From Myxococcota bacterium (GTDB lineage Bacteria > Myxococcota_C > UBA6777), in contig JAKLKB010000004.1 of assembly GCA_023150835.1 (NCBI GenBank), positions 93,301 through 157,300 on the forward strand: 64,000 bases of DNA, written 5' to 3'. A program made the translations under genes and the position numbers. This document shows positions 46,293-61,362 of the stretch, piece after piece (within the stretch, counting starts at the first letter, position 1; each line of letters starts with the position of its first letter). A model generated the notes under the pieces. It had not been told where the DNA came from. It made no database searches and was given only the letters and a program-made list of their open reading frames with translations.

Positions 46293-47279
46293 ATGGAAAG
46301 AAATCCGCGCCCACTCTTCTGTCGGTGGATAGGGTATGGTGGATGGCTGTGCCTCTTCGTTCTCGCTTGCCGAACCCCAGATCCGATGGTGCGACGAATT
46401 CAACGACTTCCGCCTCCAGAAGTTTCGCCAAAGCGTCCAGCGGATGTCGGATTAAAGGAGGAAGACGATATCCGAGAGGTGGTGTTTCGGCACTTGTGGC
46501 AGCACAACGAATCTGGTCAACAAAAACAAGCGGGTTTCTATTTTTTGATGGTGGGCGTAGGCGGGGATCCTTCTATCGAGTTATTGCAAAGATTTCAAAA
46601 ACATCAACCTCCTGTCCGTCCAGTTTCCGCCTCACGCGTCGTACGCTACAGTGGTAGCGTGGATCGACAGACAGGACGACGCGGGCTGGTCTTTTTTGTC
46701 AATTTGATTGGGTGGCGTTCTCGGACGGAGGTTTTGCTCGAAGGCGGATATATGGAATCCTCCACCAGTTTTTCGATCCATCACTATAACGTTCAAAAGC
46801 AACAAGGCCGATGGCGGGTCGTTCGCGATATCCTTTATGCTATTTCTCAAAGGCAGTCCAAGGCTACTCACACGATATCCGAGAGATGTATACACGAAGA
46901 GTCGTGCGTAGACGCCCTGTGGTTGGGCAGCCACGGGGGGCTGCCCCTACATCTTTACGATCACACTATGGGCGGATTTCGTATGAGAGGGTGTCTAACA
47001 CGGCGATATCTTTTGGAAGCGTACACATATCGGAGCCATCTGTGGGCAAAAAAAGCCGTGTTCGCAAGCGTTCGAGCGGTCGATCTGTTGGTTTTGAAAA
47101 ACGTTGCTCGCCCCGTCCATACGGGGTCAAGGGAGCCGCGCCTTGGAGGCGGGGCATGGGGCAGCGCTCCGTCAAGTCAAGTAAAACCCAACCCGATCGC
47201 TCCTATCCAGAACGAACCTTTTTTTTGGACACCCTCTCGTCTGATCGTGCGCAGAAAAGAACGGCTTCGCTGCTCATAG
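46293..47279 (+). CDS. Lipoprotein gene whose reading frame is extended through A and B elements
   Basis: A 328-codon frame. The first about 190 residues look native: signal ending LCLFVLAC, then a compact region (DIREVVFRHLW, GFYFLMVGVGGDPS, SRVVRYSGSVDRQTGRRGLVFFV, WRVVRDILYAISQ). From codon about 193 the frame runs into a family A element (46,870-46,984) and then a family B element (47,045-47,180). The C-terminal 135 residues are thus repeat translation and read as low-quality sequence. The original stop was probably removed by the insertion, or the gene is now truncated. Function of the native part unknown. Confidence 0.55.
   Translation: MERNPRPLFCRWIGYGGWLCLFVLACRTPDPMVRRIQRLPPPEVSPKRPADVGLKEEDDIREVVFRHLWQHNESGQQKQAGFYFLMVGVGGDPSIELLQRFQKHQPPVRPVSASRVVRYSGSVDRQTGRRGLVFFVNLIGWRSRTEVLLEGGYMESSTSFSIHHYNVQKQQGRWRVVRDILYAISQRQSKATHTISERCIHEESCVDALWLGSHGGLPLHLYDHTMGGFRMRGCLTRRYLLEAYTYRSHLWAKKAVFASVRAVDLLVLKNVARPVHTGSREPRLGGGAWGSAPSSQVKPNPIAPIQNEPFFWTPSRLIVRRKERLRCS
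46870..46984 (-). repeat. Family A element (copy A7)
   Basis: CACGATATCCGAGAG to GGGCGGATTTCGTAT with hairpin GGGCAGCCACGGGGGGCTGC. It lies within the open frame of the preceding lipoprotein gene. Confidence 0.85.
47045..47180 (+). repeat. Family B element
   Basis: AAAAAAAGCCGTGTTCGC, GATCTGTTGGTTTTGAAAAA, CATACGGGGTCAAGGGAGCC and GGCATGGGGCAGCGCTCC. Ends not conserved. Confidence 0.8.
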
Positions 47280-47576: not shown

Positions 47577-47795
47577 ATGAAGACGGAATTCACAGCAATT
47601 ATTGAGTCGGCTCCTGAATGCGGATATTGGGCCATTTGCCTAGAAGTCCCCGGCGCAAATGGACAGGGCGAAACCGTAGAAGAAGCAAAAGAGAATTTAC
47701 GCCAAGCAATTGAATTGCTCTTAGAAGATCGAAGAGAAGATATTCTACGGGGCTTACCCGAAGACGCCATTCAGGAAAAGATTATCTTCACATGA
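47577..47795 (+). CDS. hicB: HicB-family antitoxin
   Basis: A 72-residue protein of the HicB (UPF0150) fold: FTAIIESAPECGYWAICLEVPGANGQGETVEEAKENLRQAIEL is its span (residues 5-47), the partial RNase-H-like antitoxin domain. AAGGAG precedes the ATG. It lacks an added DNA-binding domain. Its stop overlaps the start of hicA in ATGA (47,792-47,795), showing translational coupling. The toxin gene is destroyed, so this antitoxin is now alone, though it may still regulate or counter HicA toxins from elsewhere. Confidence 0.85.
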   Translation: MKTEFTAIIESAPECGYWAICLEVPGANGQGETVEEAKENLRQAIELLLEDRREDILRGLPEDAIQEKIIFT

Positions 47796-47998
47796 AGCGC
47801 AAGGATTTATACGAAATCCGCCTATCGTGTGCGCCAAAATGTAGGGGCAGCCCCCTGTGGCTGCCCAAACACAGGGCGTTTACGGCGGATCGCACCTACC
47901 CTTCGCTCACGCATCTCTTGGATATCGTATCGTGTAGACATACAAGCAAAAGGTTTGAGGATTATGGAAATGGTCGGCTATGTTTATGTGCTTTATAA
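47792..47998 (+). pseudogene. hicA: hicA toxin gene cut off by a family A element after six codons
   Basis: The frame starts MKRKDL, a typical HicA opening, in ATGA overlap with hicB. From codon 7 it reads family A sequence (47,809-47,930). No downstream HicA sequence (normally about 60 residues with a GGRH-type motif) is present after the element. The toxin coding region has therefore been replaced or deleted with the insertion. Confidence 0.7.
47809..47930 (+). repeat. Family A element (copy A8) in hicA
   Basis: ATACGAAATCCGCC to TTGGATATCGTAT with GTAGGGGCAGCCCCCTGTGG, CTGCCCAAACACAGGGCG. It interrupts hicA. Confidence 0.9.
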
Positions 47999-48620
47999 CG
48001 ATGAAATTCCTCGCCATATAAAAGTAGGCAAAACAGCTAAAACCCCATCGTTAAGAGCAAAGGAATTAAGTAATGGAACTGGCGTCGTTGGGGATTGGCT
48101 AGTTGCTTATTTTGTTCGTGTTTCGGATTATGATGAAGTAGAAAAAAAAGCTCACGATTTATTACACAATTATCGCTCAAAAAAGAATAGAGAAATATTT
48201 AATACCAGCATTATAACAGGAATAGAGGCTGTAAACAAGGCGGCGATAAGCGTATCTTCTACAATCGATATACCAGGAATCGATGGCGTATCTGCTCAAT
48301 GTAAAACGATCAACGACAAAAGGAGCGAATCGGCCTCTGAGATCCCGCATTCTCCACTTTTCTCTACAATAAATAACCAAAGCGATGAAGAACATGTTTA
48401 TTTAACGTTGCGAAGTCGCTCAAAACGCATAAATTGCACATACTTTACACTCAGCGACGTTATTCGCGCAACGAGAAAGTGTAAAAATGTCACACAGGCT
48501 CAAGAAATGATGCTGTGCTTAAAAGCAAGAGGGTTGGTAGAATATATCGGAGAACGTGTATTAGAAAATCGAAAAAGATCAAATGTCTGGAAGATCTTAG
48601 AAAAAGAGGTCGGCGGTTAA
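47964..48620 (+). CDS. GIY-YIG-type protein with T5orf172/Mug113-like domain
   Basis: A 218-residue protein. ATG 47,964 follows GAGG. The N-terminal 80 residues (GYVYVLYNDEIPRHIKVGKT, then RAKELSNGTGVVG and EKKAHDLLHNYRS) match the T5orf172/Mug113 branch of the GIY-YIG nuclease superfamily, often found in phage and mobile DNA. The C-terminal part (residues about 140-215) has a winged-helix look (YFTLSDVIRATRKCKNVTQAQEMMLCLKARGLVEY). AT-rich composition points to transfer. Its stop overlaps the methyltransferase fragment on the other strand. Confidence 0.75.
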   Translation: MEMVGYVYVLYNDEIPRHIKVGKTAKTPSLRAKELSNGTGVVGDWLVAYFVRVSDYDEVEKKAHDLLHNYRSKKNREIFNTSIITGIEAVNKAAISVSSTIDIPGIDGVSAQCKTINDKRSESASEIPHSPLFSTINNQSDEEHVYLTLRSRSKRINCTYFTLSDVIRATRKCKNVTQAQEMMLCLKARGLVEYIGERVLENRKRSNVWKILEKEVGG

Positions 48621-48838
48621 AAATTTAGGTAATAAGGAGGATCTTGGATCGCTAGAGTTGGTGCGGTGTTTTCGACCAGCGCTACGACGTGCGTTGCGTC
48701 GCTCGCGTTCAAACACCCAACCCTGTGCTTGCCTTTCGGATCTTTCCAGATCTCGCCTGCTTTCAACCGACAGTACGGCAACAGGCGGTTTCGCGATTCA
48801 GGGGAAAGATCCAGACGTGGTAACGGGTTGTTTTTCAT
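48617..48838 (-). pseudogene. N-terminal stub of a DNA methyltransferase ending at DPPY
   Basis: A 73-codon remnant. It reads HRVGCLNASDATHVVALVEN, TAPTLAIQDPPYYLNF then stop. The DPPY motif is catalytic motif IV of N4/N6-adenine or cytosine DNA methyltransferases, and the preceding part fits the start of the beta class. The rest of the enzyme (about 200 residues) is missing: the downstream side is the GIY-YIG gene. The remnant suggests that this spot once held a phage or restriction-modification gene. Confidence 0.65.
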
Positions 48839-48864
48839 CGCAATTCCTGTTGGTATTCTGTAGT

Positions 48865-49006
48865 CTCCAAAAAGACGTGTTTGCGATCGCCCAAGCGGCA
48901 GAGTCGTTGGATTGAAAACGGACGATCACTCCGCCGAGTTGGGGTCAAGGGGCGACAGTCTATGGCGGGGCGTGGGGCAGTACCCCACAAACCATCGAAC
49001 TGCGTC
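48865..49006 (+). repeat. Family B element joined directly to family A
   Basis: GATCGCCCAAGCGGCAGAGT, CGTTGGATTG, GTTGGGGTCAAGGGGCGACA, hairpin GTGGGGCAGTACCCCAC, right end GAACTGCGT, then family A starts at once at 49,007. Confidence 0.85.
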
Positions 49007-49249
49007 ATACGATATCCGCCCATAGTGTGATCGTAAAGATGTAGGGGCAGCCCCCTGTGGCTGCCCTATTACAGGGTGTTTTGTTTATGCCCGACGGAAC
49101 GGATGGGAGGGCAGCCCCCTGTGGCTGCCCTATTACAGGGTGTTTTGTTTATGCCCGACGGAACGGATGGGAGGGCAGCCCCCTGTGGCTGCCCTATTAC
49201 AGGGCGTCTACGCACGCCCCTTCGTGTACGCATCACTCGGATATCGTAT
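49007..49249 (+). repeat. Family A element (copy A9) with internal triplication
   Basis: Starts ATACGATATCCGCCC and ends CGGATATCGTAT. The middle part containing GGGCAGCCCCCTGTGGCTGC and CCTATTACAGGGTGTTTTG is present three times (about 64-bp period), so the copy is 243 bp and not 115. Confidence 0.9.
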
Positions 49250-49313
49250 GAGTCCTATCTGAAACGAAGAGCGTTGGCCTTCTTTGTCAACCTGATCAAA
49301 GGAGGTTTCGCTG

Positions 49314-49940
49314 TTATTCTTCCCGTAGGTAGGGTGCGCCTTCGTGGATCGCCTCCAACAGCGCCTCTTCATCGACCGCACCGTCTTCATCCAAAAAGTC
49401 CGGTAAAAAGTAGTCTTCGCAATCGTCGGGGGTTGCTTCGATCTTACAGCCTTGGATGCAGTCGCCATCGCCGATCACGACTGCCGTGACATCCGACTCA
49501 AAATCCATGTAAAAGTCCGTCGTCGCGATGATCAGCTCGGCTTTGGTTGGACCTTCGACACGCAACAAACCACCGTTGTCACCCTGCCGCCCCAAGATCG
49601 CCCCTCGCACACGCAAAGAGCCGCAGATATGGACATTGGGACAACCATGCAGCGCCACATTGTCGGCCACCACGTTGCCCGTCACAAACAAGAAAGAGCC
49701 GCTCCCCCACTCGTGCCAATCCACCGTCCCACGCACCGTCAGATCGCCATCCACGATAACGTTAAACGGATTCCAGTCCTGCGTACTGTCGCTCCCAAAG
49801 TCGCCCGATATCGTTTGATCGCCATCGTACAATCGGATCTCTTGCTCATCCTCAAAGTCTTGATACGGGTAATCGATCTTCTCCGAGATCCCAAAGCTCT
49901 CTTCTGCGTCCTCTGCCGAGATTAGCTTATACCTCGCCAT
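49314..49940 (-). CDS. Polymer-forming cytoskeletal (bactofilin-like) beta-helix protein
   Basis: A 208-residue cytoplasmic protein. The centre has short beta repeats typical of a right-handed helix: NVIVDGDLTVRGTVDWHEWG, SFLFVTGNVVADNVALHGCP, VHICGSLRVRGAILG and LLRVEGPTKAELIIATTDFY. This matches the proteins annotated as polymer-forming cytoskeletal protein in Myxococcota and relatives, with GDLTV and GNVVA turns. The C-terminus is acidic. The role (scaffold or immunity-like) is unknown. It is transcribed away from the RNA-repair gene's 3' end on the same strand, 185 bp apart. Confidence 0.65.
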   Translation of the reverse strand: MARYKLISAEDAEESFGISEKIDYPYQDFEDEQEIRLYDGDQTISGDFGSDSTQDWNPFNVIVDGDLTVRGTVDWHEWGSGSFLFVTGNVVADNVALHGCPNVHICGSLRVRGAILGRQGDNGGLLRVEGPTKAELIIATTDFYMDFESDVTAVVIGDGDCIQGCKIEATPDDCEDYFLPDFLDEDGAVDEEALLEAIHEGAPYLREE

Positions 49941-50085
49941 CCTTCGTACTCCTGCTGTGTTGGGGCCTATGTCGACGCTTCCTTTGCGAATCCTCGCTCG
50001 TTTCCATCCTTACCCGATCTATCGTCTGTTGGCACAAAAAACTTCGCTCTTTGATAAAAAAAATCACCCCCTCCCCAACTTCGCC

Positions 50086-50156
50086 ATCAATCGGGGCTTT
50101 TCGCCATACCACCCAACTTCGCCATCAATCGGGGCTTTTCGCCATACCACCCAACC
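50086..50156. repeat. Short direct repeat downstream of the RNA-repair gene
   Basis: AACTTCGCCATCAATCGGGG plus CTTTTCGCCATACCACCC occurs twice, about 39 bp apart, spanning the end of the RNA-repair gene and its flank. Confidence 0.7.
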
Positions 50157-53100
50157 AGTCCTCCCAACTTCGCTTGCCTTGTTGGATCTCCTCAAGCTCC
50201 TTCTGTCCACAACGAAACGCTTGACGCAATTGGGCGAAGGTTTCGGGCGTAACCAAGCGTGCGCTGTTGCGCTGTGGCGCAACAGGCGTATAGATCGGCA
50301 TCAACCCTGTCGAAGGATCTTCTTCTGAACGCTTGTCGATGCGCGTGATCCCGATCGGGTGCATCCACGAACAATGCGAAAACGTCGCAAAGAACGCCTC
50401 CAACAACGCCACCCTTTGCGTCTGCTTCTGCGCTGCGGGATGCGTACACAGCCAAGCCACCAACAGCGCCCAACTCATCCCGCCAAGATATCCCTTCGCT
50501 TGTTCGTGAACTTCCGCTTGCACCGCCCAACACTTGATCACCCGCAAGATATCGGAAAACGCAGCGTGACATCCATAACGCGCAAGCACCGCACGCAGGT
50601 ACAACACATCCAACAGCCCCAACAGCGACCGCTGACTGGCGATATCCCACGCTTCCAGCGACAAGGCACGCTCGATATCTACCGAGTGACCGCGCTGCAC
50701 CATCCAAGAAAGATGCCCCAAGTTCTCCTGAAATCCAGCACTTTCGACAGCTTCTGGCATCCGCGCATACAAGATATCCACTTCGAGGCCCGCCGCTCGC
50801 AACTTCAACAACGGCACCCGCGCATCCCAGATCACTCGCGCCTCTTCGATCCCTTCCCATCCCAAAAGACCCGCCATCACAGAAGAATTGAACACCTCAC
50901 GCGACAACTCCGATGGCCCGATACACAAGATATCCGCATCGCTATGTAAGGTCTGCGCACCGTACGCCGCCGCTCCCACGGGCCACCAGACACGCCAAGG
51001 CAACGCACCTTTCGCCTCGACCGAACAGACACGCTCGCAAAGCCCACGCAATGCCTCCAACAACGCAGCCGAGCGCGTCTGTTTTTCCGAAACAGCCGCC
51101 TCCAACCCCTGCAACCAGCTCCGCAAGCCTTCTTCTGCTTTCTCGATATCGGCCTCTTCGGTCGCCTGTGGCGTCGATGTATCCGCCACGTTCGTGTGAG
51201 GAACGGCGCTTTCTTCTGGAGCCTGCTTTTGGCTTGCGACCACCGCTTGCTCTCGCTCTGGGGCGTTCTCTTCTCCCAAATAAATCGTGCGCTTACCGCC
51301 AAAGAAGACGCGCTCTTGTACTTCAAACGGGGCTTCTCCTTTGCGACAGATCAACGCAACGTGATCCACCACAAAACGGACGGGCCGCCACGATAGTTGC
51401 CAACCCTGTAAGGTTTTTTGTAGCTCTCCGCGAGCGTCCCCACGCAACTGACCCAAACTCAAATGGGGCGTATAACCCGAGCGAGAACGATGGCTTTGCT
51501 CATCGCAAAGCGGAAACAGCGCTTGTAAGGCCGATTGAAGACGGTGCAAGTCACGAGATGGTTCCACCGATGGCTCTAACCAGATCGTATCGCTCTTTCC
51601 GTGACGAAAGCTGCGCATCTGCGAAAAGCTCACTTCAAAGGGCTTCACTTGCGCAAGTGCCGCTTGGATGGCCTTGATCGCATCGGGAAAAAGCACCGAT
51701 TCCACAAAGCCGTACACCAAATTAAGATGAGGCATCCAACGCCTATAGCTTTTGTCGTGCTTTTGGCGGATCGCTTGGATCGGCTCCCACAGATCAGGCG
51801 GTGGTATCACGATCAACGCGCTATGATAGGTCGGTTGGGCCTTTGCCAGCCGTTCAAGCAACGGCTCCTCCAACGGATTCACAGCCTTCAAAGCCTTGGC
51901 CGCTTTCGATACCCCGGCCACCGCGACGATTTGGGTGGCTTCGGATGATTCGGCGACTGCGATGGTTTGAGTGGCTTCGAATACCTCGGCGACTGCGATG
52001 GCTTGAGTGGCTTTCGATACCCCGGCCACCGCGACGATTTGGGTGGCTTCGGATGATTCGGCGACTGCGATGGTTTGAGTGGCTTCGGATACCTCGGCGA
52101 CTGCGATGGTTTGGGTGGATTCGGAGGCTTCGTCAGATTCGGACGCATCGGAGGAGTTCTCGCCACGTTTCGCTCCGTCTGAGTTCTCGCCACGTTTCGC
52201 TCCATCCGAGTTCTCGATCTGTTCTTGCTTTTCGGATACGCCGACCAAATCAGAGGGATGTTGTGTTGCTTTGTTTGTCAACAGCGCAGGATCGGGCGAT
52301 TCATCCAAAGGCACAGAGAAAGACACCGCCAAACCGAAGTGATCCGAAGCGTAATCACGTCCAAGCAAGCCCCCCATCGAACGAGCCGAAGGGAAGCCAA
52401 ACATCTCTGCCTGCATCGGCATTACCGCTGCGTCGGGATCAGCCAACCAAACAGCGTCCAAACGCCGCGAGCGCCCCGAAACGCTCAAGGCCGATGCAAG
52501 TGGATTATGAAGCGGATCGAAACTTTCGCAGGGGCGCTCCATCTCCAACATCGGCCAAGTATCGACAAAACCCGCTGCTTCAACCGCATCCCAAAGCAAC
52601 GGGATACGGCTGGTGTCGAGATGAGCGAGTTCTTCGGGGATCTCCATCAAGGGATACCACACAACATCGCGGGGATCTTCGTTGAGGTCGCCAAACAAAA
52701 ACCCCCGCTTTTGTACAAGCGTCCAATCTTGCGCACAGATCGAAAGAATCTCTTCGCGATCAAGTACACGCAAAGACGCGGATGGTTGGGCGCTTTGCCA
52801 TGCCAAGACGCGACACAAGCTATGAAGCTGCAACGACCGAAGGAACCGACCCATCCGCGCAAAGTCACTGCTGAGATGAACGCACGCTGCAAAACTTAGC
52901 TTCCCACCGAGCGCAAACTGCGCGATCAGCGCGTGCTTTTCCCCTGAAAAACGCAGATCTTGAAGCAAAAAAGGCCGTCGCATCAACAGCAATTGTCCAA
53001 CGCCCTCGCCCAACCCCTGTGCGGTTTCCTCTTCGGACACCCAATAATGCGAGCGCACCGACGAGTTACGCAACAACATCCGCACCATCGCAGGTTCCAC

Positions 53101-53706
53101 TTCTTGCAGCCCGATCAGATCCGCATCACAGGCCGACAAGATCTCGATGGCTTGAGCATAACGCTTCTGGGTCTGATCGCCGCCTGCCGCGTAGCGGCCC
53201 GCAAGAACATTCCACGTCACAACGCGAAAGCTTGGAGATTCGGGGATGGGCTGGATCTCCCCCTCCCAAGGCATCCAGCGACCGAGTGTTGAAACAAACC
53301 GATAGCATCGGCGTGTACGCAACGACAAGCCTTTGAGATGTTGCCGCGCTAACGTGATCCACAGCGATTCTTCTGTCATACTCGACGGAAGAGCGACGAT
53401 CTCTGCGGGAGGCTCGCTCCCCTGCCCAACAACATCTGCCAAACGGTCGATCCGCGCAGCACGATCCCACACCACTTCACCGTTGTATTCGAATCGCTCG
53501 ATCCGATGCCAAGGCACTTCTTCTGGATCAAAACCGTCAAACGGGACGCGCTTGCTGCCCATAAACCGCTCTTGCATCTCGATCCAACAAGCTGCTGTGT
53601 CAAAACGCCGATCCCATCGGATCTGATCGTAGATCTGACGGCCCGTCCGAAATGGACCTTCCACGAGACTCTGGGTTTCTTGCGTTTTTGGGGGTAATTT
53701 TCGCAT
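50125..53706 (-). CDS. Four-domain predicted RNA end-repair protein (MJ1316-EEP-2H phosphoesterase-poly(A) polymerase)
   Basis: A 1193-residue protein; GGAGG lies 8 nt before the ATG at 53,706. Domain 1 (about 20-90) is the MJ1316/DUF504 RNA-binding domain: IYDQIRWDRRFD, EVPWHRIERFEYNGEVVWDR, ARID. Domain 2 (about 160-460) is an endonuclease/exonuclease/phosphatase: TWNVLAG, QEVEP, HLSSD, GDLNEDP and SDHFGL. A repetitive linker (about 500-610, SEATQTIAVAE units) follows. Domain 3 (about 640-800) is a LigT-like 2H phosphoesterase with two H-x-S/N-x motifs, MPHLNLVYG and YTPHLSLGQ. Domain 4 (about 890-1190) is a eukaryote-type poly(A) polymerase: VGAAAYGAQTLHSDADI, EVDILYAR (three Asp), IKCWAVQ, YLGGMSWALLVA. 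Together these could trim, open cyclic phosphates and re-extend damaged RNA ends. The role is inferred. Confidence 0.8.
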   Translation of the reverse strand: MRKLPPKTQETQSLVEGPFRTGRQIYDQIRWDRRFDTAACWIEMQERFMGSKRVPFDGFDPEEVPWHRIERFEYNGEVVWDRAARIDRLADVVGQGSEPPAEIVALPSSMTEESLWITLARQHLKGLSLRTRRCYRFVSTLGRWMPWEGEIQPIPESPSFRVVTWNVLAGRYAAGGDQTQKRYAQAIEILSACDADLIGLQEVEPAMVRMLLRNSSVRSHYWVSEEETAQGLGEGVGQLLLMRRPFLLQDLRFSGEKHALIAQFALGGKLSFAACVHLSSDFARMGRFLRSLQLHSLCRVLAWQSAQPSASLRVLDREEILSICAQDWTLVQKRGFLFGDLNEDPRDVVWYPLMEIPEELAHLDTSRIPLLWDAVEAAGFVDTWPMLEMERPCESFDPLHNPLASALSVSGRSRRLDAVWLADPDAAVMPMQAEMFGFPSARSMGGLLGRDYASDHFGLAVSFSVPLDESPDPALLTNKATQHPSDLVGVSEKQEQIENSDGAKRGENSDGAKRGENSSDASESDEASESTQTIAVAEVSEATQTIAVAESSEATQIVAVAGVSKATQAIAVAEVFEATQTIAVAESSEATQIVAVAGVSKAAKALKAVNPLEEPLLERLAKAQPTYHSALIVIPPPDLWEPIQAIRQKHDKSYRRWMPHLNLVYGFVESVLFPDAIKAIQAALAQVKPFEVSFSQMRSFRHGKSDTIWLEPSVEPSRDLHRLQSALQALFPLCDEQSHRSRSGYTPHLSLGQLRGDARGELQKTLQGWQLSWRPVRFVVDHVALICRKGEAPFEVQERVFFGGKRTIYLGEENAPEREQAVVASQKQAPEESAVPHTNVADTSTPQATEEADIEKAEEGLRSWLQGLEAAVSEKQTRSAALLEALRGLCERVCSVEAKGALPWRVWWPVGAAAYGAQTLHSDADILCIGPSELSREVFNSSVMAGLLGWEGIEEARVIWDARVPLLKLRAAGLEVDILYARMPEAVESAGFQENLGHLSWMVQRGHSVDIERALSLEAWDIASQRSLLGLLDVLYLRAVLARYGCHAAFSDILRVIKCWAVQAEVHEQAKGYLGGMSWALLVAWLCTHPAAQKQTQRVALLEAFFATFSHCSWMHPIGITRIDKRSEEDPSTGLMPIYTPVAPQRNSARLVTPETFAQLRQAFRCGQKELEEIQQGKRSWEDWLGGMAKSPD
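51880..52210 (-). repeat. 36-bp-type in-frame repeats in the RNA-repair linker
   Basis: About eight alternating 36-bp units encode variants of SEATQTIAVAEV, SSEATQIVAVAGV and SKATQAIAVAEV. A second block (NSDGAKRGE, 27 bp) is duplicated beside it. The whole lies between the EEP and 2H domains. Confidence 0.85.
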
Positions 53707-53805
53707 CTTCGTTGCCTCCGTGTTTGCGGCAACAAACGATCTCCCCCCTCCCAAAGTTCAAACCAACCCACAAAGGCCCTCTTTCTCTACAGCATCGGGT
53801 GTTTT

Positions 53806-53901
53806 ATAGCAGAGGTCGATTGAAAAGGTGAGCAGTCGAAGCTTGAAGATCACGGATGCTGCGGCCTTCTTTTCATCACCAGTTCAATCGTCCCGTGCTA
53901 T
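53806..53901 (-). repeat. Family C element (copy C2), inverted to C1
   Basis: The reverse complement of 47,276-47,371 with 3 differences in 96 bp. Starts ATAGCAGAGGTCGATTGAAA, ends CAATCGTCCCGTGCTAT. Confidence 0.9.
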
Positions 53902-53939
53902 TAGAGTTTGATATGGGTAGTTGCACCACACGCGCCATT

Positions 53940-54216
53940 ATACGAGATCCGCCCGCTGTGTAATCGGTAAAGATGTAGGGGCAGCCCCCTGTGGCTGCCC
54001 AATCGTAGGGCGTCTAGCGCCATTATACGAGATCCGCCCGCTGTGTAATCGGTAAAGATGTAGGGGCAGCCCCCTGTGGCTGCCCAATCGTAGGGCGTCT
54101 AGCGCCATTATACGAGATCCGCCCGCTGTGTAATCGGTAAAGATGTAGGGGCAGCCTGCCCAATCGTAGGGCGTCTACATACTCTCCTTTGTGTACGCAT
54201 CTCTCGGGTATCGCAT
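53940..54216 (+). repeat. Family A element (copy A10) with tandem 85-bp copies
   Basis: ATACGAGATCCGCCCGCTGT with GTAGGGGCAGCCCCCTGTGG and CAATCGTAGGGCGTCTAGCG is repeated at 85-bp spacing. Three copies occur, the third with a short deletion (GGGGCAGCCTGCCC). Only the last reaches a right end (CGGGTATCGCAT). Confidence 0.9.
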
Positions 54217-54221
54217 TAGGC

Positions 54222-54385
54222 AGAGGCAACGCCGTAAAACCCCCGTGTTCGCACCCGTCCAAGCGACAGGGTCGTCTGTGTGAAAAACGATGATCTCCTC
54301 ACCAAACAAGGGGTCAAGGGGCGAACGTCCCTTGCGGGGCGTGGGGCAGAACCCCACAACACCTACCCAACGGCGGAATTCTTAT
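54222..54385 (+). repeat. Family B element
   Basis: GTGTTCGCACCCGTCCAAGC, GACAGGGTCG, AAGGGGTCAAGGGGCGAACG, TCCCTTGCGG and hairpin GTGGGGCAGAACCCCAC. It follows family A after a few bases. Confidence 0.85.
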
Positions 54386-54527
54386 CCTATCAAAAGAAAA
54401 AAGCGCAGTCATGCGGATCTTGTGGGTCTAAGAGGCCCACCTTGCGCAATCCCCCGAGCCTTCTGCGCATCCTCCGTGTTTCTCGTTCAGATCACGCAAC
54501 GTACACTCGATCACACGACCACGCCTG

Positions 54528-54761
54528 TCAACCCCTGCGTCCGTCGCGCCGCCACGCATCCTTGATCGCGCTGCGAGCGACTTGATAGATCCATGCGTTC
54601 ATGCGTTCTTCATCGCGAACATCGCCCAATCCACGCCATATCCGCAACAATGCCTCTTGCAAGACATCTTCTACATCCGACGCAGAGACTCGCTTGGCCA
54701 CGAATTGACGCAATCGTTCGCGCCATGCCCGCCACACCACTTGCCGATCTCCTTGTTCCAT
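54528..54761 (-). pseudogene. Truncated sigma factor with region 2 only
   Basis: 77 residues: RERLRQFVAKRVSASDVEDVLQEALLRIW, then RMNAWIYQVARSAIKDAWRR, which is a good sigma-70 region 2 (span 15-75). An ECF sigma should continue about 100 residues with region 4, but the frame stops and no region 4 was found downstream in other frames. The gene starts right next to a family A array (A11). It is most likely a remnant. A functional region-2-only protein cannot be excluded. Confidence 0.6.
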
Positions 54762-54776
54762 CCGCTCTCTCCCGTT

Positions 54777-55047
54777 ATACGATATCCGAGTAGGTACACA
54801 AAGAAGAGTACGTAGACGCCCTATGATCGGGCAGACACTGCCCCTACATCCTTACGATCACACAACGGGCGGATCAAAGAAGAGTACGTAGACGCCCTAT
54901 GATCGGGCAGACACAGGGGTCTGCCCCTACATCCTTACGATCACACAACGGGCGGATCAAAGAAGAGTACGTAGACGCCCTATGATTGGGCAGACACAGG
55001 GGTCTGCCCCTACATCCTTACGATCACACAACGGGCGGATCTCGTAT
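54777..55047 (-). repeat. Family A element (copy A11) with tandem 76/83-bp copies
   Basis: Begins ATACGATATCCGAG and ends GGGCGGATCTCGTAT. The segment AAAGAAGAGTACGTAGACGC to ACAACGGGCGGATC occurs three times, starting at 54,800, 54,876 and 54,959. The first lacks 7 bp (AGGGGTC) of the hairpin arm. Confidence 0.9.
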
Positions 55048-55437
55048 CATCTCTGCGTTACGTCGTTCCCAACCTGTTTTGGGCACTTTCGTACCTTCTA
55101 CACCACAAGACGCCACCCTCCACAAAAGGACGCAAGCCCACACCACGATTTTTCTTCCTCAACCACCCCAACGATGTGCAAAGCCTGCGCGTTCCGCACA
55201 AATCAACATTGAAACACGTTCACAAAATTTTCTCCGCGACCTTGCGCGACCCTTTTTTTGTGTACTCGTCTCCTCAGCCAACAGGATCGCTCCTTGACGC
55301 AACGGGCGAGATCGAGCAAGCCCAAAAAAGCACCGCTCTTTCCGCCTGCGTCATCACGCCTCATTGGAGCCCATTCTAGTTGACCGAAGCGATGACGCTC
55401 TGCTCTCTTCACCCCACTTTCTTTGGAGGATATTGTC
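55048..55437. other. Intergenic region with nothing recognised
   Basis: No convincing gene, dispersed repeat or terminator seen in these 390 bp, apart from GGAGGA before the following start. Confidence 0.4.
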
Positions 55438-56058
55438 ATGCGAATCCGCTCTCTTTTCTTGGCCGTCGCTGCTTGCTTTATGCTAAGCGGCTTCCTCTCT
55501 CAAAACGCAAACGCCCAGACGATCTATGGTCTGTGGCGTTCGACCACAGGAAACGTCTTTGAGATCCCTTATGCTCCCGGCAATTCTTTTGACATGGTGG
55601 TGACTTACACCAACGGACAACGCGCTGTCGTCCGTGGTGCTTGGATCCGTGGGATGCGTGGCAGCCAGTTTTTCTACGTCGCTGGTCAGTCCCGTTGCAC
55701 AGGCACGTTCTCGGCGATGCGCTCCAACGTCGTACGAGTCGATTGTAACGGGCGAGTCAGTTGGTGGCAGCGCTCTCGCTCACGCAAAAGCCGCAGTGTC
55801 GCCTACGCTGGAACATGGCAATCCACATCAGGTTCGCGCTTCACTGTCCCTGCGAGTCGTGGGCCGTTTAACATCATCGCCACGTTTCGTAATGGACAAA
55901 AAGCCGTCTATCGGGCTTATTGGGTCCCCGGCATGGTCGGAATCCAGTTCCGCTACGGCAACCCCGCTGTCACGGTGACCTACAACCCAAGCAATCCGGG
56001 CGTCTTGCGCGTTGTCGATGCCCGTGGTGGGGTCTTCTGGTGGCGTCGTCTCTACTAA
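55438..56058 (+). CDS. Small secreted protein with two internal repeats
   Basis: A 206-residue exported protein. GGAGGA precedes the ATG at 55,438, and the signal peptide ends NANA. The mature part consists of two copies of a roughly 75-residue unit sharing (L/T)W(R/Q)STxG, (F/T)V(F/P)xxP..GPF, xTxxNGQ(R/K)AVxR, (A/W)WxxGMxGxQFxYxxG and VxRVVxxxGxxxWW. An Arg/Ser linker joins them (RSRSRKSRS). The beta-rich pattern resembles a small barrel. Family unknown. Confidence 0.65.
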   Translation: MRIRSLFLAVAACFMLSGFLSQNANAQTIYGLWRSTTGNVFEIPYAPGNSFDMVVTYTNGQRAVVRGAWIRGMRGSQFFYVAGQSRCTGTFSAMRSNVVRVDCNGRVSWWQRSRSRKSRSVAYAGTWQSTSGSRFTVPASRGPFNIIATFRNGQKAVYRAYWVPGMVGIQFRYGNPAVTVTYNPSNPGVLRVVDARGGVFWWRRLY

Positions 56059-56069
56059 AAACCTTCCTC

Positions 56070-58064
56070 CTACCAACGCTTGCGGCGTTCTTCTCGCCGT
56101 TTTTTTCGTTCTTCCCGCCACCGCGCAAACAGTCCTTTGGGCTTGTCTTTGGGGATCAAGCCAGCGTTGCGTTGAATGCCTTTCTGAAAAGGTCGCAGTA
56201 TCGGGTGTTTTTCAATCAAGGCATCTAAAAACCCACGAAGAAACCGACGAGACAACATCTGCATCAGGCGGGGATTCATATCCGCAAGCAGATGACTATC
56301 GACGGAAAATCCCGTTTGAAGGGCGTATCCATTCGGGAGTTTTCGCACGTGCTGGTTGACGATGCCTGACAAGATGCCGAACAACGCTTTTTTGAAGACC
56401 TGTTTGTTTTGTTTCACCACCCCCACATCAAGCTGATGTACTCGAAATTGGGCTTGGATGCGCGTGCGTTCGTTGGAACGAGGCGAAAGATCGAGACGTG
56501 CGGTGATCAGACCTTTGTTGATTTGAAGGGGGGTTTTTTGCTGATCGATAAAACGGTTGAGCAGCGTGGAAGGGATGCGATGAACGATCAGGCGATGGTT
56601 GTGTTCCGCTTGTTTTTGTGAAGAGAAGCGCACCCCGCCATGCCCCAAGACCCACGCTGATCCTTCGGCAGAAAAAGGACGAGCCAGCAGATAACGGATA
56701 TCGAGATCACGAACATCTGCTTGCACGCGATTCATTTGGATCTGTACACGGCGCGGGGGTTTGGAAGGATCTTTGCGATCGCGCAAGGTGAAGTGCAAAC
56801 GGACTTCGCCTTCTTGGACTTTGGCATGGCGCATCTGCAACCACGGCGGTTTGCGATGATGACGAGGCGGGTGAGTGCGTTTCTTGAGAAAATGCAGCGT
56901 AAAGATCGGCTTTTGCGCCACAACATCGTCAAGAGCGATGATGCCATACAACAACGGCCACATCTGGATCGTCGCATCGGCTTGCGGGATCTCCAAACGC
57001 ATCTGTTGATGGGGTTCTTGGCTTTTTAAGACAAATCCGCGCAGGCGCACAGAGCCTTGCAGATCTTTCAGATCCGCTTGGAGATGGCTGATCTGGAGAT
57101 CGCGCTCGCGCCCCACTTCAAGCCGATGCTGCATCGAAAAGCGCCCGCCCTCGATCACCAACGAAGACAGGCGCGGCGACAACAGCGTAAGCGTTTGGCG
57201 CAACGCTACGGGATCTCGCGGAGGATCGGGGGGACCGCTTCGCACCAGCCGCACCGCCGGTCCGATCAGCCGAACGCGTTCCAACGCAGGAGACGGAGCC
57301 AACAGCGCATCCACATCCAAAGCCAACTCCCCTTCGGGTATTTGGACGGACAAGGTTTGCTTCTTCATACTTACGGATGCTTCGGCTTGTTTTATCTTCA
57401 CACGACCTTGCATCCTCGCTAACGTCGCCTCCACCGAACCCACACGCACCACGATCTTTTGGGGCTGATGTTGCTCAAACAACATCCGACCTTCCGCGAT
57501 CTCCAGCCGCTCGATCACCAACAAACGCGACCGAAACTTCTTCATCGCTTCTTGCATACGCTTGACTTGCGCCCGAACACCCGATGCTCCGCCCTGTTTG
57601 AAAGAGGCGCTACCGCCCGATGCTTCGCCCTGTTTGAAAGAGGCGCTACCGCCCGACGCACCGACGTCTTGAGAGGACTGGAGCGTGATGTCCTGCGTAG
57701 AGACGCCCCGCAAGATACGGATCTGGGGTTGCTTGACTTGGACGGAGGCAAGCCGCCGACTTCCGAGCAACACCCGCCAGATCGGCAGGCGAACGGCTCC
57801 CTCGGAGGCTTGCAAGGAAAACGAGGTCTCGCGCTGCACCCGCAACAACCGAAAAGATCGCACACGCAAGACTCCCGAAAAGATATCCGCTTCGACCACT
57901 TTTCCTGAAACACCATGCTCTTTTAGCCGATCCAACGCCATCTGCGCCAACGCGATCGGAAACAACAACCCCACCCCGACAGCGCCCAACCCAAGCAACA
58001 AGCCCCCCCCAACAAGCCATCGCAACCATCGAAAGGATCGCTTTTTTTCTTTGTTTTCACTCAT
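56070..58064 (-). CDS. AsmA-like / DUF748-type membrane-anchored protein
   Basis: A 664-residue protein with one N-terminal helix (LRWLVGGGLLLGLGAVGVGLLF), then a large periplasmic beta-rich region of the AsmA/TamB/DUF748 type (VEADIFSGVLRVRSFRLLRV, VQVKQPQIRILRG, SSLVIEGGRFSMQHRL, NGYALQTGFSVDSHLLADM). Such proteins are bridge-like lipid carriers or envelope assembly factors. The C-terminus is strongly basic (REERKKRREERRKRW). An in-frame 36-bp repeat (GGSASFKQGEAS) lies at residues about 120-145. The start at 58,064 overlaps the glycosyltransferase stop in ATGA, so the two are translationally coupled. Confidence 0.7.
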   Translation of the reverse strand: MSENKEKKRSFRWLRWLVGGGLLLGLGAVGVGLLFPIALAQMALDRLKEHGVSGKVVEADIFSGVLRVRSFRLLRVQRETSFSLQASEGAVRLPIWRVLLGSRRLASVQVKQPQIRILRGVSTQDITLQSSQDVGASGGSASFKQGEASGGSASFKQGGASGVRAQVKRMQEAMKKFRSRLLVIERLEIAEGRMLFEQHQPQKIVVRVGSVEATLARMQGRVKIKQAEASVSMKKQTLSVQIPEGELALDVDALLAPSPALERVRLIGPAVRLVRSGPPDPPRDPVALRQTLTLLSPRLSSLVIEGGRFSMQHRLEVGRERDLQISHLQADLKDLQGSVRLRGFVLKSQEPHQQMRLEIPQADATIQMWPLLYGIIALDDVVAQKPIFTLHFLKKRTHPPRHHRKPPWLQMRHAKVQEGEVRLHFTLRDRKDPSKPPRRVQIQMNRVQADVRDLDIRYLLARPFSAEGSAWVLGHGGVRFSSQKQAEHNHRLIVHRIPSTLLNRFIDQQKTPLQINKGLITARLDLSPRSNERTRIQAQFRVHQLDVGVVKQNKQVFKKALFGILSGIVNQHVRKLPNGYALQTGFSVDSHLLADMNPRLMQMLSRRFLRGFLDALIEKHPILRPFQKGIQRNAGLIPKDKPKGLFARWREERKKRREERRKRW

Positions 58065-58837
58065 GCCCCTCTCCGCTCTGTTCGTGCCATCCACGCAAGA
58101 TGCCCCATCTCCCACAACGCTTGCGAAAGATGCTGCCCAAATAACCCCGAATATCCTTGCGCTTCCCAACGACGCAACGGATACTCCACCGTTCTTCGGT
58201 TGGTCTCTTCCACTTGAACCTGCAACCGCAGCAGCACCTCCGATTGCCACAACAGCCTACACGCAAAGGGCTTTTCTAAAGCCCGCAACACGGCTGCTGA
58301 GGGCAAAAAAGCTTGCGTAAAACACAACGTATCATACGTCGCGATATCCAGCGCAAGACTAATCCCCGTCGCCAAGATCCGCTCATAATAAAGCTGCACC
58401 AACGAACGCTTGATATCCCGTCCCAACAAGCGCAACCGCACAGCCATCACATGATCCACGCCCCGCGTTCCCCGCAAAACGCCGAGCATCCCGTCGAGAT
58501 CGGCGACATCCACTTCGCCCTCTGCATCCCAAAAACAGCCTGCCACCGCACCTTCCGAAAAACTCCACAACAACCCCTCGCGCACAGCCTCGATCATCTC
58601 CGCAGAACGCACCACAAACGCTGCCTTCGCACGATAAATCCCGTGTATACGCCCCTTTCCCACTTCGGCCAGCCGCTCACCGATCTGCCCAAACTCCCCC
58701 TCCAACAACCCCACCACCACCACATCCACCAACGGCATCGACACCAACGCTTTTTCCATCCAACGCATCTTGCGATCCCAACGCTCTCGACCCGCAAAAG
58801 GCACCACCAACGCGATCCGATCTGCCAAACGACCCAT
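58061..58837 (-). CDS. Glycosyltransferase family 2-like protein
   Basis: A protein of about 258 residues with features of dolichyl-phosphate mannosyltransferase-like GT2 enzymes: IALVVPFAGRERWDRKM at the start, AGCFWDAEGEVDVADLDGML where the metal/nucleotide aspartates (D-x-E/D) should be, then MAVRLRLLGRDIKRSL and SLALDIATYDTLCFTQAF, resembling the GT2 acceptor region. No membrane helices. It lies upstream of the AsmA-like gene in an operon and downstream of a methyltransferase gene, so the group may modify a surface glycolipid. The start is uncertain: ATG 58,837 or TTG 58,879. Confidence 0.6.
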   Translation of the reverse strand: MGRLADRIALVVPFAGRERWDRKMRWMEKALVSMPLVDVVVVGLLEGEFGQIGERLAEVGKGRIHGIYRAKAAFVVRSAEMIEAVREGLLWSFSEGAVAGCFWDAEGEVDVADLDGMLGVLRGTRGVDHVMAVRLRLLGRDIKRSLVQLYYERILATGISLALDIATYDTLCFTQAFLPSAAVLRALEKPFACRLLWQSEVLLRLQVQVEETNRRTVEYPLRRWEAQGYSGLFGQHLSQALWEMGHLAWMARTERRGA

Positions 58838-58902
58838 CCATCCGACCTTTCTTTCTTCGACTTCGCCCAATCCACCCAATATCTCTTCTCAACACCGAAC
58901 GT

Positions 58903-59017
58903 ATACGATATCCAAGTGATCTGTGATCGAAGGAGAGCGCGTAGACGCCCTCTGCTCGGACAGCAACAGGGGGCTGCCCCTACATTCTTACGATCACACA
59001 ACGGGCGGATTTCGTAT
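58903..59017 (-). repeat. Family A element (copy A12)
   Basis: ATACGATATCCAAG to GGGCGGATTTCGTAT, with GCGTAGACGCCCTCTGC and CAACAGGGGGCTGCCCCTAC. Immediately followed by a B element. Confidence 0.88.
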
Positions 59018-59019
59018 GA

Positions 59020-59178
59020 TGCAGTGGTCAAAAAAAGCCGTGTCACGAACGCCCAAGCGACAGAGTCGTTGTCTTGAAAGATCTGCGATCTCTTCGCCAA
59101 CACGGGGTCAAGGGGCGACAGTTCACGGCGGAGTCTGGTACCTCGCCCCACAAAATAAGCCCAGCTGCGCCAGTCCTA
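59020..59178 (+). repeat. Family B element joined to A12
   Basis: Left end ATGCAGTGGTC, GCCCAAGCGACAGAGTCGTT, GTCTTGAAAG, ACACGGGGTCAAGGGGCGAC, right end CAGCTGCGCCAGTCCTATC, a recognisable but decayed copy of CAACTGCGTAAGTCCTA. Confidence 0.88.
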
Positions 59179-59181
59179 TCA

Positions 59182-59952
59182 TCAAAGAGCTTTGCGGCGG
59201 CACAACGCCCACACACTTAGCCCCGGCAAACGCACTCCCTTTCGCTCCATCCATAACAACAAACGATTCTCCATTGTCAAACCATCGGATATCACTTCCG
59301 TCAACCCATCTCCGCCGCTCCAAGCCCCGATCCCACCGCCTGAAACGGACTTCCCTACAAGCTGACGCAGCTTCTCCAACAACACCGAGACTCCACGCGC
59401 TGGCAACAACGAAGCAAACAGATATCCCCAACGCACAGGCTCCAACCCCGCCCCCACCAACACAGGCTCCAGCGTCTCCCATCGATACCGCCGATAATGC
59501 GCCAAAAAACGATCGTGCTGCGCAAACAACAACTGAAACGCTGGAACCGTCACCAACACGTACCCATCCGCACGCAAACCATGCTCTACATAACGGCGCA
59601 ACAAACCAAGATCATCAGGAATATGCTCTAACACATCCAACAACAGCAACAACCCAAACCCCCTAGCCTCCACTTCTTCCACATCCCGCACAAAACGCGC
59701 CCTCGGATACTCCCGCAACAACGCGCTGATCTCTCCATCCGTAAGCGCAGGATCGACCCCCACCCAACGCGCTTCTCCGCGCAATCCTCGACACACCTCT
59801 GCCGCCGTAAACCCATCTCCACACCCCACATCCAACACCTGCAAACCCGCCGCAAGCGGCACATCCGCCACGATCTCCGCCAAAGTCCGTGCCCGCGCAA
59901 TCTCCCACGGATGACGCCTCTTCCCCTCCAATCTCGCCTCTTTCAGATCCAT
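59182..59952 (-). CDS. SAM-dependent methyltransferase
   Basis: A 256-residue class I methyltransferase. AGGAG precedes the ATG. VLDVGCGDGFTAAEV is the SAM-binding motif I; VGVDPAL follows as motif II; LLLLDVLEHIPDD is motif IV. The region FLAHYRRYRWETLEPVLVGA (substrate-binding lid) and a C-terminal FASLLPARGVSVLL are as in sugar or lipid methyltransferases found in glycan clusters. It lies upstream of the glycosyltransferase-like gene; A and B elements separate them. Confidence 0.82.
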   Translation of the reverse strand: MDLKEARLEGKRRHPWEIARARTLAEIVADVPLAAGLQVLDVGCGDGFTAAEVCRGLRGEARWVGVDPALTDGEISALLREYPRARFVRDVEEVEARGFGLLLLLDVLEHIPDDLGLLRRYVEHGLRADGYVLVTVPAFQLLFAQHDRFLAHYRRYRWETLEPVLVGAGLEPVRWGYLFASLLPARGVSVLLEKLRQLVGKSVSGGGIGAWSGGDGLTEVISDGLTMENRLLLWMERKGVRLPGLSVWALCRRKAL

Positions 59953-59999
59953 TCACGCTCCTGCTTTCTTTTTTCTCTTGTCTTCTCGTAAGATTTATG

Positions 60000-60145
60000 C
60001 CAGCGAATTTTTTGGTGGGGCGCTGCCACACACCCCGCAAGGGACGTTCGCCCCTTGACCCCGTATCGGCGAACAGATCACTGTTTTTCAAACCAACAAC
60101 TCCGTCGCTTGAAGCATCACAAACACGGGGGGTTCCATCAGCCCA
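60000..60145 (-). repeat. Family B element (reverse orientation)
   Basis: GGTGGGGCGCTGCCACACACC, CGCAAGGGACGTTCGCCCC, TTGACCCCGTATCGGCGAAC, ACTCCGTCGCTTGAAGC: the reverse complement of the family B core. Confidence 0.85.
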
Positions 60146-60162
60146 TTTCTACCGTCCATCAT

Positions 60163-60245
60163 CTTTGCGCCGGCCCGCTATCTTTACACCTGCTCGCTAT
60201 CTTTGCGCCGGCCCGCTATCTTTACACCTGCTCGCTATCTTTGCG
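60163..60245. repeat. 38-bp tandem repeat at the end of the cysteine-rich gene
   Basis: CTATCTTTACACCTGCTCG and CTATCTTTGCGCCGGCCCG alternate, giving two copies of a 38-bp unit plus part. The second half overlaps the last codons of the cysteine-rich gene. Confidence 0.85.
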
Positions 60246-61362
60246 CCTTGGTGTGCTTCTACCGCGCTTTCTTCGATACAACAAAAATACCCAAAACCCA
60301 AGCCCCCACATAGACATCCCTTCCGCGCCAACCCATCCACACAAGCATCCCGAAGCGCGCACCACAAACCCCGAATCTCTCGTTTCTTCCGATCTTTCCA
60401 CCTCCATCGCTGTTTCTCCTGCCCCTTCCACCGCTGTTTCCCCCTCCGCCTCGCCCGCGTCCCCCACGATCGTCTCTGTAGGCTCGACACAACGCCCGCC
60501 CAAACACGGCCATCCTTCGCTACATCGCTGATCGCACCCCCCACAATGCCAATCATCAAACATCAAATCGACACAACCTCCCCCACAACGCTGCGAACCC
60601 GGCGGACACACCGAAAGAATCTCACAACGACCTTTGATGCAGTCCTCTCCCAAACCACACGCCCGACCGCACGCCCCACAATGCAGCCGATCGCTCATCC
60701 CATCGACGCACTGCCCCCCACAGATCTGCTCACCTGCTGCGCAACGCCCCTTACATCGGCCACCTTCGCAGATCTCATCCTCGCCACAATCCTGCCCGCA
60801 CGCCCCACAATTCGCCGCACTTTTCTGTAGATCCACACAAACGCTCTCGCACAAGGTCTCGCTTCCCCCACAACCTTGACCCACACAAACGCCTTTCTCG
60901 CAACGTCCGCCTGCTTGGCACGCCTTCCCACAAGCCCCACAATGCGACGCTTCCATTTGAAGATCCGCACACACTGCACCACAACGCACCCAACCTGCCC
61001 GACAATCTTCGATGCACACACCTTGCGTACACGTCTGCCCCGCAGCACAGGCCCGATCACATCCTCCGCAATGGATCGGGTGGGTCTGTAGATCCACACA
61101 GAGCGCACCACACAAGCCTTGCCCCGCCGAGCATTGGGCGCTGCTCGTGTAGCGGATCTCCACCGCAAAAGCATCCACCCAAGCGTCGCTATCGCGCTTT
61201 CCGCCCGGATGACGGTCCTGTCTCGCTGTACCCGGGATCTCCATCATCAACGATCTTTTCCCACGCGCTTTGCGCCTGCGCCTCCCCACAACCCCACGCC
61301 CACACCAACACAAAGACCACCCCCATAAACCAGAACTTCGTCGCTTGTATCGTCTCGGCCAT
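60222..61362 (-). CDS. Cysteine-rich surface protein with MYXO-CTERM-like tail and an apparent frameshift
   Basis: AAGGAG precedes an ATG at 61,362 whose frame gives a lipoprotein-like signal (MGVVFVLVWAWGC) and AWEKIVDDGDPGYSETG, then stops at 61,189. The cysteine-rich body continues in another frame, open upstream to 61,472 but without a sensible start. One extra base near 61,190-61,235 would join the two (GRKAR to SDAWVDAF). The body has six HCGxC/NCGxC modules. An acidic linker follows, then SGCLCGWVGAEGM, a hydrophobic helix and YRRKR. The pattern C-x-C, helix, Arg cluster is that of MYXO-CTERM anchors. GDPGYSETG resembles the start of golvesin-type domains. The gene may be broken, or this base may be a sequencing error. 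Confidence 0.6.

What the first reader, a model, noticed from the sequence alone, without database searches (positions are those of the whole stretch)
50125..53706. A single protein that combines MJ1316, EEP nuclease, 2H phosphoesterase and eukaryote-type poly(A) polymerase
Four RNA end-handling modules lie on one 1193-residue chain, each with its catalytic motifs visible (TWNVLAG/GDLNEDP/SDHFGL; two H-x-S/N-x motifs; GA-x-SDAD and EVDILYAR). MJ1316-type domains and 2H enzymes are tied to cyclic-phosphate RNA ends, EEP enzymes to phosphate removal or trimming, and poly(A) polymerase to re-adding nucleotides. The order suggests a self-contained repair machine for RNAs cut by toxins or stress (for example tRNA ends). 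It sits beside a HicB antitoxin, a nuclease-like protein and a methyltransferase stub, a typical conflict neighbourhood. The domain set may already be known from comparative genomics; I cannot check.
Basis: partly seen in the sequence, partly recalled or inferred. Interest (0 to 1): 0.8.

Follow-up and report, generated by a model that had tools for sequence, protein, structure and literature searches.

The report
Four-in-one RNA end-repair protein
One bacterial gene encodes a single protein with four RNA-end modules that is predicted to clean the damaged 3' ends of cut RNAs and would then add fresh nucleotides; the same fusion occurs in other bacteria, so this is a new member of a known kind.

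The parts
50125..53706 (-). Complete CDS, 1193 aa (MJ1316 - EEP - 2H - PAP)
   Evidence: 87% identical ORF in the same-genus genome
53715..53719 (-). GGAGG ribosome-binding motif, 8 nt before the ATG
   Evidence: sequence printed
53461..53649 (-). MJ1316 domain (residues 20-82)
   Evidence: Pfam E 5e-14; 8.5e-15 in the whole-genome search; W31, D32, P65, R68, W80, D81, R82 kept in 54 or 55 of 55 aligned proteins
53257..53373 (-). Helix plus beta-strands between MJ1316 and EEP (residues 112-150), confidently folded, no Pfam hit
   Evidence: mean block pLDDT 90; R132 and W144 invariant in 13 sequences
52306..53244 (-). EEP domain (residues 155-467), TDP2-like; N166, E202, H277, D340, N342, D417, D455, H456
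51904..52272 (-). Low-confidence, repeat-built linker (residues 479-601)
   Evidence: mean block pLDDT about 30; 36/108-bp and 27-bp tandem repeats within 51902-52216
51337..51804 (-). 2H phosphoesterase domain (residues 635-790): H660-x-N662 and H748-x-S750
   Evidence: Pfam 2_5_RNA_ligase2 E 2e-38; both His in 52 of 55
50146..51159 (-). Eukaryote-type poly(A) polymerase core (residues 850-1187): G911-A912, D923, D925, D977
50125..50145 (-). End of the protein; the roughly 110-residue PAP RNA-binding domain of other members is absent here
   Evidence: tail after W1181 is 12-18 aa in P0001-P0004 against 83-142 aa in the other 62 of 66; no clear remnant in the DNA at 48501-50600 (best tblastn E 0.75)

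Best explanation
This gene encodes one 1193-residue protein that joins an MJ1316 domain, a TDP2-like EEP domain, a 2H domain and a eukaryote-type poly(A) polymerase core, and it is predicted to act as an RNA 3'-end healing and tailing enzyme that would turn the blocked ends of cleaved RNAs into extendable 3'-OH ends and then extend them. Proposed order, all inferred: MJ1316 docks on the 2',3'-cyclic phosphate left by a metal-independent ribonuclease; the 2H domain opens the ring to a phosphomonoester; the EEP domain removes that phosphate to give a 3'-OH; the PAP core adds nucleotides, probably A, restoring lost bases or marking the RNA. Shown here: the domains, their order, the conserved motifs, predicted folds for EEP and PAP, and co-occurrence with RlaP in related bacteria. 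Not shown: any activity, the substrate, the order of steps, or whether the product is repaired or degraded.
Against: By profile and fold the EEP domain is nearer TDP2 than CCR4-type enzymes, and TDP2 works on 5' tyrosyl ends (recalled), so a 3'-phosphatase role is only an analogy. The 2H domain is far below the cut-off of NCBI's 'RNA 2',3'-cyclic phosphodiesterase' model (21.9 bits against 65.7), and its first motif is H-x-N, not H-x-S/T. The window copy has G-A instead of G-S in the PAP signature and lacks the RNA-binding domain, so tailing may be weak. In the window genome RlaP and RtcB lie on other contigs, so linkage is not general; all 24 cases within 10 kb come from one genus. Fourteen genomes keep MJ1316 with no PAP_central match, so the four steps are not always needed together. 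No RNA ligase family turned up among the 10 neighbouring window ORFs scanned; ATP-dependent RNA ligases were not searched for in the genome.
Confidence: 0.55

Rival explanations
1. Tail-for-decay: the protein cleans cut RNA ends and adds a tail so that 3'-5' exonucleases can degrade the fragments, rather than repairing them.
For: The polymerase domain resembles a poly(A) tailing enzyme, not a CCA-adding enzyme. In bacteria poly(A) usually promotes decay (established knowledge, recalled). No RNA ligase family was found among the 10 neighbouring window ORFs scanned.
Against: Co-occurrence and linkage with RlaP, a family predicted to restore bases before ligation. The genome also encodes RtcB.
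Confidence: 0.2
2. The EEP domain acts at the 5' end, removing a tyrosyl or other adduct as TDP2 does, so the protein treats both ends of a broken or protein-linked nucleic acid.
Against: MJ1316, 2H and PAP all point to 3' ends; the shared EEP fold does not fix the substrate.
Confidence: 0.12
3. The window clade is a degenerate or repurposed version: PAP lost its RNA-binding domain and signature Ser, and the protein only heals ends without tailing.
For: Tail of 12-18 aa in 4 of 66 proteins against 83-142 aa in the rest; G-A in P0001-P0003. Other members show domain loss: lone MJ1316 in 14 genomes, degenerate PAP motif in dinoflagellate P0014.
Against: All three PAP aspartates are kept in P0001-P0004; PAP_central is strong (E 3e-20).
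Confidence: 0.1
4. A nucleotide-signal device: the PAP core makes oligonucleotides (OAS or CD-NTase like) that the 2H and EEP domains degrade.
For: Weak hits to CBASS cyclases (NCBIfam E 1.5e-4, far below cut-off; PADLOC E 0.0022; CdnC E 3e-4). 2H and EEP members such as AKAP7 and PDE12 cleave 2-5A (recalled).
Confidence: 0.03

Closest known systems
Bacterial proteins in public records named 'RNA repair domain-containing protein' or 'poly(A) polymerase' (Kitasatospora, Streptomyces, Actinosynnema, Saccharothrix, Coleofasciculus), and dinoflagellate 'Leng9'
   Same: Same Pfam domains; same order in the bacterial ones aligned; same catalytic residues in nearly all
   Different: The window clade lacks the C-terminal PAP RNA-binding domain, has a 59-157 residue EEP-2H linker (4-55 elsewhere) and, in 3 of 4, G-A for G-S. 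Dinoflagellate P0014 has 2H at its N-terminus and lacks the PAP aspartates
Canonical eukaryotic poly(A) polymerase (human PAP gamma 4lt6, mammalian 1f5a, yeast Pap1)
   Different: Fused to three other modules; the RNA-binding domain is missing in the window protein
TDP2 (EEP superfamily)
   Different: About 20% identity; lies in an RNA-end protein; substrate unknown
ANGEL2 followed by mitochondrial poly(A) polymerase
   Same: An EEP phosphatase that makes RNA 3' ends ready for polyadenylation (PMC9525292 passages)
   Different: Separate proteins in mitochondria, and a CCR4-family EEP; similarity in how it would work, not membership
RlaP RNA-repair polymerases (PF10127)
   Same: Pol-beta superfamily (stated for RlaP) and RNA-repair setting; co-occurs, and is linked in one genus
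   Different: Different family and separate genes; on another contig in the window genome

Membership tests
Four-domain bacterial MJ1316-EEP-2H-PAP family | All four domains on one chain in this order | tested here: met
Four-domain bacterial MJ1316-EEP-2H-PAP family | Catalytic residues of EEP, 2H and PAP kept | tested here: met
   the exception is G-A for G-S beside the PAP Asp triad
Four-domain bacterial MJ1316-EEP-2H-PAP family | C-terminal PAP RNA-binding domain (long tail in 62 of 66 aligned proteins; fold checked only in P0009) | tested here: not met
   common but not defining, read as a clade-specific loss because P0002-P0004 share it
Four-domain bacterial MJ1316-EEP-2H-PAP family | RNA end-healing and tailing activity | not testable with these tools
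   needs purified protein
Canonical (eukaryote-type) poly(A) polymerase | NTase and central domains with Asp triad | tested here: met
   PAP_NTPase 0.1 bit under cut-off, PAP_central far over
Canonical (eukaryote-type) poly(A) polymerase | RNA-binding domain | tested here: not met
MJ1316 RNA cyclic group end recognition domain (PF04457) | Pfam profile above cut-off | tested here: met
   53.2 bits against 26.3
MJ1316 RNA cyclic group end recognition domain (PF04457) | Binds RNA 2',3'-cyclic phosphate ends | not testable with these tools
   stated in PMC6514570 passages; not tested here
2H phosphoesterase | Two H-x-[S/T] motifs | tested here: inconclusive
   both His present; first motif H-x-N in the window and 46 of 55, H-x-T in 8; second H-x-S in the window
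RNA 2',3'-cyclic phosphodiesterase (NCBI equivalog TIGR02258) | Score above the equivalog cut-off | tested here: not met
   21.9 bits against 65.7; so called a 2H domain, not this enzyme
TDP2 | EEP fold and EEP catalytic residues | tested here: met
TDP2 | 5'-tyrosyl phosphodiesterase activity | not testable with these tools
   not testable from sequence, so not filed as TDP2
CCR4/ANGEL-type EEP | Closest relative within the EEP superfamily | tested here: inconclusive
   TDP2 ranks above CNOT6L and nocturnin; ANGEL2 is not among the rows listed
HicAB toxin-antitoxin neighbourhood | HicB match above cut-off next to the gene | tested here: not met
   18.4 bits against 27, about 2.3 kb away
CBASS / OAS-type cyclase | Cyclase family model above cut-off | tested here: not met
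   NCBIfam 21 bits against 200

The most novel reading that the evidence does not exclude
Probability: 0.3. Interest if true: 0.6.

Novelty: new member of a known kind. Interest (0 to 1): 0.42.

Why it matters
If the predicted steps hold, one polypeptide would do in bacteria what eukaryotes split over several proteins: recognise a ribonuclease-cut end, remove its phosphate and re-tail it. It would give template-free, eukaryote-type polyadenylation a damage-response role in bacteria. The natural series found here (full protein, protein without the PAP RNA-binding domain, lone MJ1316 near RlaP) shows which modules can be separated and makes the role of MJ1316 directly testable.

Tried and rejected
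Toxin-antitoxin or conflict-island reading: rejected as unsupported. HicB is below cut-off, flanking gene order is shared with the sister genome, PADLOC gives one weak hit for the window protein and none for P0005 and P0012, and tblastn of P0005 (not of the window protein) against the phage collection found no match.

Plasmid origin: tblastn of P0005 hit 7 plasmid records. One is a clear plasmid (Calothrix, conjugative, 55% identity). The Nonomuraea record (11.9 Mb) and the Embleya record H2 (3.1 Mb) show no annotation in the stretch and look chromosome-sized; Embleya H4 was not opened; the two Streptomyces hits and the Planktothrix hit cover only 18-25% of the query. I draw nothing from those six.

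Nucleotide second messenger: considered and ranked low.

Missing RNA-binding domain as a frameshift or assembly artefact: rejected; tblastn of three C-terminal tails against window 48501-50600 gave no hit better than E 0.75, and P0002-P0004 end alike.

No useful result: the EEP region alone and residues 1-150 alone found nothing in the PDB by phmmer; the 2H region alone gave only BSU11850 at E 0.039 plus unrelated rows. The structure comparisons barely tested MJ1316 and 2H, so no fold match for those two is claimed; ANGEL2 did not appear among the rows shown.

Literature: Burroughs and Aravind 2016 (10.1093/nar/gkw722) is not held; I saw only its entry in another paper's reference list and recall that it treats MJ1316 fusions. 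Searches for 'DUF504', 'MJ1316' and 'RNA repair domain-containing protein' gave 0, 2 and 0 papers. I make no claim that the architecture is unpublished.

Rows dropped: the tail count used 66 proteins, leaving out P0044, P0047, P0049 and P0053 as short or partial. L002, L006 and L039 are the same 12,639-base contig and are counted once. P0056-P0065 came after the conservation counts and are not in them.
Full report
OBSERVATION. The gene is at window 50125-53706 on the minus strand, 1193 codons from an ATG preceded by GGAGG. Pfam finds MJ1316, Exo_endo_phos, 2_5_RNA_ligase2, PAP_NTPase (0.1 bit under cut-off) and PAP_central in that order. phmmer against the PDB finds poly(A) polymerases, best human PAP gamma at E 9e-24.

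ORGANISM. The nearest named relative is a 'Myxococcota bacterium' metagenome-assembled genome with an 87%-identical copy. In the genome collection the window's phylum holds only five genomes; MJ1316 is present in 4 of 5. The copies in the same-family genomes G003 and G004 are only about 27-30% identical to the window protein in local alignments and fall outside its clade in a FastTree tree, which suggests transfer or ancient duplication; the deep branches are long.

CONSERVATION. In 55 proteins (window included) the ten EEP residues checked are identical in 55 of 55, the two 2H histidines in 52 of 55 and the PAP aspartates in 51 of 55; two of the four PAP exceptions are partial sequences, the others are dinoflagellate P0014 and divergent P0055. 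P0014 also counts as a 2H miss because its 2H domain lies at the N-terminus. The first 2H motif is H-x-N in 46 and H-x-T in 8. In the 66-protein set with myxobacteria-like members the third PAP aspartate also aligns as Glu in L037 and L045.

DISTRIBUTION. One search lists 46 proteins (window included), 33 with all four precomputed Pfam families; both of these protein searches scored only the roughly 8,000 candidates sharing most words, so these are lower bounds. Where sources give names they are mainly Kitasatospora and Streptomyces, with other actinomycetes, Coleofasciculus and Myxococcota metagenome-assembled genomes. Two dinoflagellate proteins named 'Leng9' carry all four Pfam families; other dinoflagellate relatives carry two or three. 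A copy lies on a conjugative Calothrix plasmid. In the class around G032 (genome sizes and gene content myxobacteria-like; names not given), MJ1316 occurs in 63 of 147 genomes, all in one family. Of the 20 neighbourhoods fetched, 15 hold a full-length ORF: 3 of 3 from the window's phylum and 12 of 17 from the G032 class; the other 5 hold a lone MJ1316.

GENOMIC CONTEXT. RlaP (PF10127) occurs in 79 of 147 genomes of that class: 62 of 63 MJ1316 genomes (all but G128) and 17 of 84 others. By genus it is 8 of 8 against 11 of 40, Fisher p 2e-4. Of 63 MJ1316 loci in RlaP genomes, 38 share a contig with RlaP and 24 lie within 10 kb; all 24 are in genus g90, so this is one lineage, not 24 independent events, and on complete chromosomes of other genera the two can be megabases apart. 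In L045 two RlaP genes run in tandem, one gene away from the four-domain gene. RlaP is described as an RNA-ligase-associated polymerase predicted to restore lost nucleotides (PMC7824862, passages). In the window's phylum RlaP is in the same 4 of 5 genomes as MJ1316 (G002 lacks both), but not near it; RtcB is in 4 of 5, nearest about 126 kb away in G004.

LONE MJ1316. Fourteen genomes in three genera have an MJ1316 frame under 400 aa (predicted proteins of 83-114 aa in the 12 examined) and no PAP_central match at E 1e-3; the two full-length controls were positive, and a fifteenth short-frame genome, G195, has PAP_central on another contig. In four locus pairs compared, flanking genes match those of the full-length gene, and in the three pairs where the lone gene was called it is 78-83% identical to the full-length protein's MJ1316 part, so these look like clean losses of EEP-2H-PAP. 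dN/dS over nine pairs is 0.24-0.63, consistent with purifying selection on MJ1316. 'Three times' is an inference from three genera, not from a tree of events.

NEIGHBOURHOOD IN THE WINDOW. Sister-genome alignment shows shared order at about 90% identity from 49302 to 60961, with gaps. The HicB-like ORF at 47577-47795 is below cut-off. The T5orf172 protein at 47829-48620 is real, but its link to this gene is unproven. The methyltransferase at 59182-59952 is a 256-aa ORF with a good Methyltransf_23 match, not obviously a stub.

MECHANISM. I commit to RNA 3'-end healing followed by tailing (confidence 0.55). MJ1316 is described as reading cyclic-phosphate ends (PMC6514570, passages); 2H enzymes open them (family knowledge, recalled); an EEP enzyme removing 3' phosphates so that a poly(A) polymerase can act has a mitochondrial precedent, ANGEL2 (PMC9525292, abstract and passages). 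The weakest step is the EEP: it is TDP2-like, so a 5' role is open. Whether the tailed product is repaired or degraded cannot be decided here.

NOVELTY. The fusion is known to databases, and I recall it (unread here) from Burroughs and Aravind 2016. The window protein is a new member with a clade-specific loss. The RlaP association and the repeated reduction to lone MJ1316 are, to my knowledge, new observations, limited by the papers I could search; in those searches I saw listings, plus passages of three papers.

Noticed in passing
L041, L044, L048, L049, L050 and 14 genomes: Stand-alone MJ1316 genes of about 100 aa at sites where relatives have the four-domain gene (synteny compared for L041, L044, L050), in genus g90 near a tandem RlaP pair; no PAP_central match in those 14 genomes.
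   Followed up: partly
L045:5457-6377, L046:5922-6842, L056:13159-14079: A 306-aa gene without a Pfam match (tested for L045) lies directly downstream of the four-domain gene on the same strand in three genomes; possible partner.
   Followed up: no
window 54528-54761: A sigma-70 region 2 fragment (77 aa); the sister contig has about 290 extra bases here and a 216-aa ORF, so the window copy appears shortened.
   Followed up: partly
window 47047-47170, 48876-48994, 54236-54359, 59028-59155, 60011-60130: A dispersed repeat of about 120 bp, 71-83% alike to copies in the sister contig, sits between genes and makes spurious ORFs.
   Followed up: no
window 50074-50155: A perfect 38-bp direct repeat (2.2 copies) overlaps the stop codon and 3' end of the four-domain gene.
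   Followed up: no
window 47577-47998: A weak HicB-like ORF is followed by a short ORF whose start looks like HicA to me (by eye) but runs into repeat-derived sequence.
   Followed up: partly
P0014 (Symbiodinium): Dinoflagellate 'Leng9' protein with 2H at the N-terminus and MJ1316-EEP-PAP at the C-terminus; the PAP aspartates are missing while EEP is intact.
   Followed up: partly
L070:11995-14970 (AP018209.1, Calothrix brevissima plasmid2): A four-domain relative on a conjugative plasmid, annotated 'RNA 2',3'-cyclic phosphodiesterase'.
   Followed up: partly
window 49314-49940: A 208-aa gene of no Pfam family follows the four-domain gene on the same strand, 97% identical in the sister genome; looks bactofilin-like by eye only.
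   Followed up: partly
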